Shown here piece by piece: positions 1-4,842 of a stretch of 8,064 nucleotides of DNA. Where the stretch lies: assembly GCA_009885425.1 (NCBI GenBank), contig VFKS01000045.1, positions 1 through 8,064 on the forward strand, in the 5' to 3' direction. This DNA is from Novosphingobium sp. (GTDB lineage: Bacteria; Pseudomonadota; Alphaproteobacteria; Sphingomonadales; Sphingomonadaceae). Position 1 is the first letter of the stretch, and the number at the start of each line of letters is the position of its first letter. Both the position numbers and the translations under genes were made by a program. Under the pieces are notes generated by a model. It did not search any database, was not told the DNA's origin, and saw only the letters and a list, made by a program, of their open reading frames with translations.

Positions 1-413
1 ACCATCTGGCTGACCGATTGCGCCGCGATCGGGAGCCCGGTGGCGGGCGAATAGGGCACGCCGACCCGCGCCCACAGCAGCCGCATATAATCATAGATTT
101 CGGTTACCGTGGCGACGGTCGAGCGCGGGTTGCGGCTGGTGGTTTTCTGCTCGATCGAGATCGCCGGGGACAACCCGTCGATATGCTCGACATCGGGCTT
201 CTGCATCATCTCGAGGAACTGGCGGGCATAGGCCGACAGCGACTCGACGTAGCGCCGCTGGCCCTCGGCATAGATGGTGTCGAAGGCGAGGCTCGACTTG
301 CCCGATCCCGACAGGCCGGTGATCACAATCAACTGGTCCCGCGGCAGCGAGACGTCAAAGCCCTTGAGATTATGCTCGCGCGCGCCGCGCACGGTGATGT
401 GGGTAAGCGACAT
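1..413 (-). CDS. uvrA: UvrA, excinuclease ABC subunit A (N-terminal part, cut by window edge)
   Basis: UvrA is the DNA-damage recognition ATPase of nucleotide excision repair; it loads UvrB at lesions in the cytoplasm. The 137 residues seen match the start of UvrA closely: MSLTHITVRGAREHNLKG, then the Walker A loop GLSGSGKSS at about residues 33-41, then the conserved stretches EGQRRYVESLSAYARQF, GLSPAISIEQK and NPRSTV, ending AAQSVSQMV at the left edge. The rest of the gene, including the zinc fingers and second ATPase domain, is outside the window. The ATG at 413 is the natural family start. No good Shine-Dalgarno lies between it and the LexA box 12 bases upstream, so the mRNA could be leaderless or nearly so. 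A truncated second copy of this 5' end lies at 4495-4626. Identity is essentially certain from the sequence. Confidence 0.97.
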   Translation of the reverse strand, partial: MSLTHITVRGAREHNLKGFDVSLPRDQLIVITGLSGSGKSSLAFDTIYAEGQRRYVESLSAYARQFLEMMQKPDVEHIDGLSPAISIEQKTTSRNPRSTVATVTEIYDYMRLLWARVGVPYSPATGLPIAAQSVSQM

Positions 414-454
414 GGCGCCGGTCTGTTCCAGATTTGTTCGATTCGGGCAAGGGG
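301..454. repeat. Direct repeat, intact uvrA copy (operator plus 5' coding end)
   Basis: It aligns without gaps to 4514-4667 with 17 mismatches in 154 bases by hand count (about 89% identity). The repeat covers uvrA codons 1-38, the start region and the LexA box. Homology stops abruptly at both ends. Same orientation as its partner; the Slam/lipoprotein operon is what lies between. Confidence 0.92.
425..439 (-). promoter_or_regulatory. LexA (SOS) operator of uvrA
   Basis: GTTCCAGATTTGTTC is a perfect GTTC-N7-GTTC, the established LexA box of Alphaproteobacteria (on the coding strand GAAC-N7-GAAC). It ends 11 bases before the uvrA start codon. uvrA is a classical LexA target. On the coding strand a weak TTGCCC and, 17 bases later, AACAGA could be the -35 and -10, so the box would overlap the promoter core. 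That promoter placement is inference. Confidence 0.85.
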
Positions 455-473
455 AGGCGCAAGCCCCCTCCCC
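451..473 (-). terminator. GC-rich stem-loop downstream of the lipoprotein gene
   Basis: GGGGAGG (451-457) pairs perfectly with CCTCCCC (467-473) across a 9-base loop; an alternative fold closes a GCAA tetraloop (459-462). It lies 17 bases past the lipoprotein stop codon and before uvrA, where a terminator for the Slam operon would be expected. On the minus strand it is followed by TTGCCC rather than a run of T, so it is a poor intrinsic terminator; it may simply attenuate or protect the mRNA 3' end. Its left end touches the limit of the uvrA direct repeat. Confidence 0.45.
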
Positions 474-489
474 TATGGGCAGCGCGGCG

Positions 490-4626: not shown

Positions 4627-4637
4627 GGAGCCGGTCT

Positions 4638-4652
4638 GTTCCAGATTTGTTC
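4638..4652 (-). promoter_or_regulatory. Second LexA (SOS) operator, upstream of the uvrA fragment and Slam operon
   Basis: The same 15 bases as the uvrA operator, GTTCCAGATTTGTTC, a perfect GTTC-N7-GTTC. It has no intact uvrA behind it: the next genes in the transcribed direction are the 43-codon remnant, then Slam (81 bases past the remnant's stop) and the lipoprotein. The box is well supported; its control over the Slam operon is inference. Confidence 0.8.
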
Positions 4653-4662
4653 GATTCTGGAA
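4639..4662. repeat. Perfect dyad around the second LexA box
   Basis: TTCCAGA (4639-4645) and TCTGGAA (4656-4662) are exact inverted arms with a 10-base spacer that contains the second GTTC half of the LexA box. The intact copy has TCGGGCA in place of the right arm, so the dyad exists only here. Two of the differences between the copies fall in this arm. Confidence 0.6.
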
Positions 4663-4842
4663 AGGGGCCGTTAAGTGTCTTTACAGTGACCAATTATGGG
4701 CGCACATTTTCGCCGCACAGAGAACCTCCAAGGTTGAGGCCTGCGCATTGTCATCTGGGTCTGTCAAAAGTGGCCGCCATGCCGGGAACCCCCGCGTCGG
4801 CGCGCGGCAGACTGATGTGTGCGGGAACAAGGGAGACTCAAG

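What the first reader, a model, noticed from the sequence alone, without database searches (positions are those of the whole stretch)
301..4667. Slam/surface-lipoprotein operon bracketed by direct repeats of the uvrA 5' end
Two copies of a 154-base segment (LexA box, start and first 38 codons of uvrA; about 89% identical) flank a 4.06 kb insert in the same orientation. This is the product expected if a circle carrying a uvrA 5' fragment plus the operon integrated by a single crossover, or if an element targeted the uvrA 5' end and rebuilt it. No recombinase is present. It implies that the 5' end of a core repair gene served as an insertion site for a surface-display cargo while keeping uvrA functional.
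Basis: partly seen in the sequence, partly recalled or inferred. Interest (0 to 1): 0.75.

Follow-up and report, generated by a model that had tools for sequence, protein, structure and literature searches.

The report
Slam operon docked into uvrA's start
In this environmental bacterium a two-gene operon with the signatures of a surface-protein export system lies between a decayed and an intact copy of the front end of the DNA-repair gene uvrA, a scar likely left when a DNA circle carrying both recombined into uvrA with no integrase of its own.

Summary
Window 307-454 and 4520-4667 are 135/148 identical; each holds a LexA-type box and the uvrA start, and they bracket an SLP-Slam pair. A relative, G146, shows the site without the operon: its single uvrA start aligns with the distal copy plus 135 bp of flank. 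The distal copy is therefore the old uvrA start, now decaying (two missense changes, a mutated -35-like motif, a probable 46-bp deletion). The proximal copy opens the uvrA frame, which runs to the contig edge. The operon is no stranger to uvrA: in 17 of the 75 other Slam-bearing genomes of the genus it lies 0.2-10.4 kb upstream of uvrA on the same strand, without a repeat. A second case sits in another genus (G308): a perfect 246-bp uvrA 5' repeat around an unrelated 954-bp insert.

Most likely a circularised [uvrA 5' end + Slam + SLP] fragment integrated by one homologous crossover. The first 85 nt of the proximal copy are unusually close to G146 while the rest is not, as a crossover inside the repeat would give; the tracts are short and one tree test was indecisive. 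Homology-facilitated illegitimate recombination is the main rival. A recombinase-targeted element and an assembly chimera are disfavoured, not excluded.

The parts
3..413 (-). uvrA, first 137 codons (gene cut by the contig end)
   Evidence: NCBIfam UvrA models E 1e-79
307..454 (-). proximal repeat copy: intact uvrA upstream region and first codons
   Evidence: 135/148 identical to 4520-4667
425..439 (-). LexA-type box GTTCN7GTTC of the proximal copy
   Evidence: sequence; CTTG motif before it intact
490..3015 (-). SLP: lipoprotein with Pro-Thr repeat after a lipobox-like Cys and TbpB-type barrel domain
   Evidence: Pfam TbpB_B_D 39.7 bits, cut-off 26; NCBIfam slam_lipo 51.1 bits, below its cut-off of 80
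3061..4413 (-). Slam (SlipAM family outer-membrane protein with TPR region)
   Evidence: Pfam SlipAM 54.5 bits, cut-off 22
4506..4667 (-). distal repeat copy: remnant of the ancestral uvrA start, codons 1-38 plus a piece of codons 51-56
4638..4652 (-). LexA-type box of the distal copy; the CTTG motif before it reads CTTT
   Evidence: sequence
4668..4802 (.). ancestral flank of uvrA, collinear with the upstream flank of G146 uvrA
   Evidence: 4514-4802 aligns to L107 2923-2634 at 86% in one piece
4843..5391 (+). 182-codon ORF without family match, in the flank
5425..7512 (-). TIR-TPR protein gene, upstream neighbour of uvrA also in G146 (truncated) and G155
   Evidence: Pfam TIR_2

Best explanation
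A DNA fragment carrying Slam, SLP and the first part of uvrA likely closed into a circle and integrated by a single homologous crossover inside the 5' end of the resident uvrA, which would leave the resident start as a truncated copy upstream and a complete uvrA start downstream of the operon. Shown here: the repeat, a relative without the operon whose uvrA start matches the distal copy and its flank, the decay of the distal copy, and relatives that carry Slam-SLP beside uvrA. Inferred: the donor, the circle, the role of RecA, and the place of the crossover (near codon 14-15). No recombinase is needed because the shared uvrA sequence is the anchor, and uvrA stays whole because the incoming segment rebuilds its start.
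For: (1) G146: one uvrA start, collinear with the distal copy and 135 bp of flank, no Slam match; none of the ten best etfA-like matches of G000 (G183, G131, G142, G148, G146, G152, G173, G034, G062, G155) is among the 76 Slam-bearing genomes, though four of them are under 90% complete. (2) The product is additive: no flank is lost at the distal copy, as a single crossover predicts, whereas HFIR usually deletes recipient DNA (PMC3240628, introduction). (3) Mosaic: in the core the proximal copy differs from G146 at 1 of 85 sites on the left (2 of 85, which counts a gap) but 45 of 367 beyond; p 0.005, and none of 1243 other pairs with 10-16% divergence beyond has fewer than 3 of 85. Read as a crossover, the donor tracts (proximal left, distal right) differ from G146 at 5/148 sites and the resident tracts at 12/148 (from the site list; not tested). 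(4) Donor-type arrangements exist: Slam-SLP-uvrA in G004, with the same 76 bp between SLP stop and uvrA ATG as here, and in G220 of another genus. (5) Second case with perfect repeats in G308.
Against: The mosaic rests on 85 nt; the pairs are not independent and gaps count as differences. An AU test on nt 108-411 does not reject grouping the proximal copy with G146 (p 0.275). The core tree joins the proximal copy with G146 and then the distal copy, with supports of only 0.78 and 0.81. No donor is sampled: the best Slam among the 195 genus genomes is 61% identical, though 96% matches exist in a protein database without context. Later gene conversion between the copies could mimic the mosaic. 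In G308 the source of the insert is unknown.
Confidence: 0.55

Rival explanations
1. Homology-facilitated illegitimate recombination: linear donor DNA recombined homologously in uvrA at one end and was end-joined inside resident uvrA (about codon 56) at the other; the whole distal copy is resident and the proximal start is donor.
For: Same final anatomy. Known in natural transformation (PMC3240628, introduction) and proposed for displaced T6SS genes that leave old genes behind (PMC5361080, passages). Proximal nt 108-411 rank closest to Slam carrier G013 (90.1%), not to G146.
Against: Usually deletes recipient DNA and is about a million times rarer than homologous recombination in E. coli. Does not explain why the left 85 nt of the proximal copy are so close to G146 while the rest is not.
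Confidence: 0.2
2. The repeat-flanked operon is older than the split from G146, and G146 lost the operon by recombination between the repeats.
For: Such a deletion would give a clean site like that of G146; the copies differ by 13/148, about as much as the species.
Against: G155 also has the TIR gene directly upstream of uvrA and no Slam match, and the other near relatives have no Slam match.
Confidence: 0.1
3. Assembly chimera: two strains, one with TIR-uvrA and one with Slam-SLP-uvrA, were wrongly joined.
For: Draft metagenome-type assembly, reads not available; G465 shows that such contigs occur.
Against: The distal copy carries two missense changes, a probable 46-bp deletion and a mutated CTTG motif, not expected of a live uvrA of another strain; 4400-4519 has no match to uvrA long enough to explain a wrong join except the 14-17 nt at the remnant itself. 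The G308 case comes from a 10-contig genome.
Confidence: 0.08
4. A site-specific mobile element targets the 5' end of uvrA and carries a replacement start, as dusA islands do, and has lost its integrase.
For: The anatomy resembles dusA islands, whose insertion supplies a new 5' end (PMC4482086, passages).
Against: No recombinase in the six ORFs scanned; repeats of about 150 and 246 bp instead of about 21 bp; scars end at different codons in G000 and G308.
Confidence: 0.05

Closest known systems
Single-crossover (Campbell-type) integration of a non-replicating circle, including ligated linear DNA (PMC3240628, abstract and introduction)
   Same: Additive insert flanked by direct repeats of the homologous segment; one copy truncated, one complete; no integrase
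   Different: Natural, old and decayed scar; circle and RecA dependence not observed
Homology-facilitated illegitimate recombination and T6SS effector displacement in Vibrio (PMC5361080, passages)
   Same: A conserved core sequence anchors the entry of an accessory module and old sequence stays behind
   Different: There the old effector is displaced and the mechanism only suggested; here the anchor gene is rebuilt and no flank is lost
dusA-specific genomic islands (PMC4482086, passages)
   Same: Insertion within the 5' end of a core gene with a replacement start supplied by the insert
   Different: About 21-bp att repeats and an integrase there; 150-250 bp repeats and no recombinase here
Slam / type 11 secretion pairs, 'Sphingomonas surface protein' cargo (PMC12282271, passages)
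   Same: Slam-family gene beside a lipoprotein with N-terminal Pro-Thr repeats and TbpB-type barrel domain
   Different: Ordinary in kind; only its place between uvrA repeats is unusual

Membership tests
Single-crossover integration scar | insert flanked by direct repeats of one resident segment, one copy truncated and one complete | tested here: met
Single-crossover integration scar | site without the insert in relatives, collinear across the joint | tested here: met
   G146
Single-crossover integration scar | crossover inside the repeat (exchange of halves between donor and resident) | tested here: inconclusive
   in favour; indecisive
Single-crossover integration scar | circular or circularised donor; RecA dependence | not testable with these tools
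   needs experiment
Integrase-borne island in a gene's 5' end (dusA type) | integrase gene in the insert | tested here: not met
   six ORFs scanned
Integrase-borne island in a gene's 5' end (dusA type) | short att repeats at a fixed codon | tested here: not met
Slam / T11SS pair | SlipAM barrel above the curated cut-off | tested here: met
   54.5 bits against 22
Slam / T11SS pair | N-terminal Slam TPR model above its cut-off | tested here: not met
   PF24575 32.9 bits against 35.2; general TPR_19 model above its cut-off
Slam / T11SS pair | partner with TbpB-type barrel domain | tested here: met
   39.7 bits against 26; NCBIfam slam_lipo below its cut-off
Slam / T11SS pair | Slam-dependent surface display | not testable with these tools
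   needs experiment

The most novel reading that the evidence does not exclude
The 5' end of uvrA is a recombinase-free docking site: accessory genes that live just upstream of uvrA move between sphingomonads as circles or fragments that carry a piece of uvrA, dock by homologous recombination on the resident uvrA and rebuild it each time. The truncated uvrA starts in two genera are the fossil record of this traffic, with repair-gene homology in place of an integrase.
Probability: 0.3. Interest if true: 0.7.

Novelty: new variant of a known kind. Interest (0 to 1): 0.45.

Why it matters
It is a natural scar of additive integration at a core repair gene, with both the site before insertion and the likely donor arrangement visible in relatives. 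If uvrA homology alone carries cassettes between species, islands without integrases could be traced by looking for truncated starts of their neighbouring core gene, a search that can be run on any genome collection. The surface-protein operon itself looks like an ordinary Slam pair.

Tried and rejected
A scan of genome contigs with the Slam protein gave no relative. rpoB gave no match in the draft genome, so a gene that I read as etfA from its sequence (no family search) ranked the relatives. SOS control of Slam by the stranded LexA-type box was considered: the box is intact, but the CTTG motif before it, present in 59 of 61 distinct upstream sequences from the held loci, is mutated, so I do not claim it. 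G465 looked like a third case but shows a 79-bp repeat at a contig end and a second uvrA 82.5% identical on another contig; not counted. G304's second match lies in a frame of 888 codons far away; not counted. G090 has two contigs whose ends share identical uvrA start sequence, which cannot be told from an assembly overlap; not counted. G052 has two partial pieces on two contigs; not counted. Matches of 4400-4519 to the held loci were short or weak, apart from G000 itself and the 14-15 nt of the remnant. A tree of nt 108-411 did not settle ancestry. uvrA was sought in near relatives and others: no match at E 1e-20 in G131, G154, G062 and G140; G183 and G142 hold only a C-terminal part. No paper on uvrA as an insertion site or on truncated uvrA copies was seen in the listings (12 of 184 papers listed; 15 of 16 listed); most subscription journals are missing from that library.

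Full report
What is there. The window is the whole contig C34 (8064 bases) of a draft genome of 2.39 Mb in 557 contigs. The genus is most likely Novosphingobium: a Slam protein named for Novosphingobium sp. G106 lies on a contig of 6,172,107 bases, which is the length of contig C1 of genus member G088. On the minus strand, in the direction of uvrA, the order is TIR-TPR gene, distal uvrA 5' copy, Slam, SLP, proximal uvrA 5' copy and uvrA. A 182-codon plus-strand ORF without a family match lies between the TIR gene and the distal copy. The two copies are 135/148 identical, and nothing else in the window comes near.

The distal copy is the old start. G146 is 91% identical to this genome over 848 of 924 nt of an etfA-like gene, the second-highest identity after G183 (93%) and fifth by score. 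In G146, window 4514-4802 aligns in one piece with the single uvrA start and 135 bp upstream of it, and the first 139 residues of the TIR protein are encoded just upstream. G146 has no Slam match at E 1e-30. G155 likewise has the TIR gene and then uvrA, about 0.9 kb apart, and no Slam match. So uvrA once began at the distal copy. That copy has since decayed: against G146 it has an E-to-A and a P-to-L change, a G-to-T change in a CTTG motif that stands at this place in 59 of 61 distinct upstream sequences with an exact box, and a probable 46-bp internal deletion, seen from the 17-nt match to uvrA nt 151-167. In the 148-bp core, nine differences are private to the distal copy, four to the proximal copy and two to G146.

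The operon is a neighbour of uvrA in the genus. Of 195 genus genomes searched, 76 have a Slam match at E 1e-30, this one included. I compared positions by hand: 17 of the other 75 (G004, G005, G013, G028, G048, G057, G072, G083, G088, G101, G108, G127, G132, G136, G158, G169, G193) have it 0.2 to 10.4 kb upstream of uvrA on the same strand. The rest have it on another contig or far away, or their uvrA position was not listed. The stretches held for these 17 show one uvrA start each (60% identity or more over 28 residues), apart from a 61% match to the second ABC domain in G108 and a second long uvrA on another contig in G158. G220 of another genus has Slam, SLP and uvrA in this order. In G004 the SLP stop and the uvrA ATG are 76 bp apart, as here, and the blastn match runs from uvrA to window position 502, past the SLP stop.

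How often does the scar occur? The UvrA N-terminus was searched in 195 genus, 397 family and 396 order genomes, overlapping sets, with matches in 174, 374 and 382. A truncated second start near uvrA was confirmed in two, G000 and G308. Several other genomes had two or three matches. I looked at the uvrA neighbourhoods, about 10 kb upstream as a rule, of 13 of these (G100, G080, G077, G123, G025, G147, G157, G158, G220, G541, G676, G319, G712) and found one start in each stretch; apart from G158, their second matches lie elsewhere and were not looked at. G680, G735, G750 and G758 were not examined because their positions were not listed. G052, G090, G304 and G465 are set aside for the reasons told under tried and rejected.

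The second case. G308 (99% complete, 10 contigs, genus g33 of the same family) has a perfect 246-bp repeat, 121 bp upstream plus the first 125 nt of uvrA, 1200 bp apart, with an unrelated ORF of about 203 codons in reverse orientation between. That ORF has no Pfam match and no relative in the other genomes' loci held. Genes of a Gabija defence system (GajA, GajB) lie just upstream. Its two genus relatives fetched, G226 and G367, align with it only to 39-43 bp before the uvrA ATG, so the insert-free site was not recovered there.

How it likely arose. The product is additive and keeps the flanking DNA at the joint, which a single crossover of a circle predicts; HFIR usually deletes recipient DNA (PMC3240628, introduction). 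Under a single crossover the left part of the proximal copy and the right part of the distal copy should be donor. The proximal copy differs from G146 at 1 of 85 sites on the left by the ungapped count, 2 of 85 in the alignment, but at 45 of 367 beyond (p 0.005), and none of 1243 other pairs of similar divergence beyond has fewer than 3 of 85 (pairs not independent, gaps counted as differences). The identity ranking also changes, from G146 (95.3%) in nt 1-107 to G013 (90.1%), with G146 outside the ten best, in nt 108-411. Against this, an AU test does not reject grouping nt 108-411 with G146 (p 0.275). I hold the single crossover at 0.55, with HFIR as main rival.

What is new. Slam pairs with this cargo architecture are described (PMC12282271, passages), additive single crossovers are long known, and gene-start islands with integrases are known (PMC4482086, passages). 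A natural scar of this kind in a core repair gene, with a site before insertion, donor-type relatives and a second independent case, was not seen in the paper listings.

Noticed in passing
L166 9995-12762 (G308): Complete-looking Gabija pair (GajA, GajB) directly upstream of the truncated uvrA copy.
   Followed up: partly
L107 6003-7151 (G146): TIR-domain protein resembling CAP12/Pycsar effectors (PF10137), downstream of uvrA.
   Followed up: partly
5425-7512: TIR-TPR protein with no PADLOC match at E 1e-3; relatives in 60 other genus genomes at E 1e-20, two of them (G146, G155) beside uvrA.
   Followed up: partly
4843-5391: 182-codon ORF with no Pfam, NCBIfam or PADLOC match and no relative in the loci compared.
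   Followed up: partly
genus genome G131: A 99% complete near relative shows no uvrA match at E 1e-20, and its TIR gene runs to within about 10 bases of a contig end.
   Followed up: no
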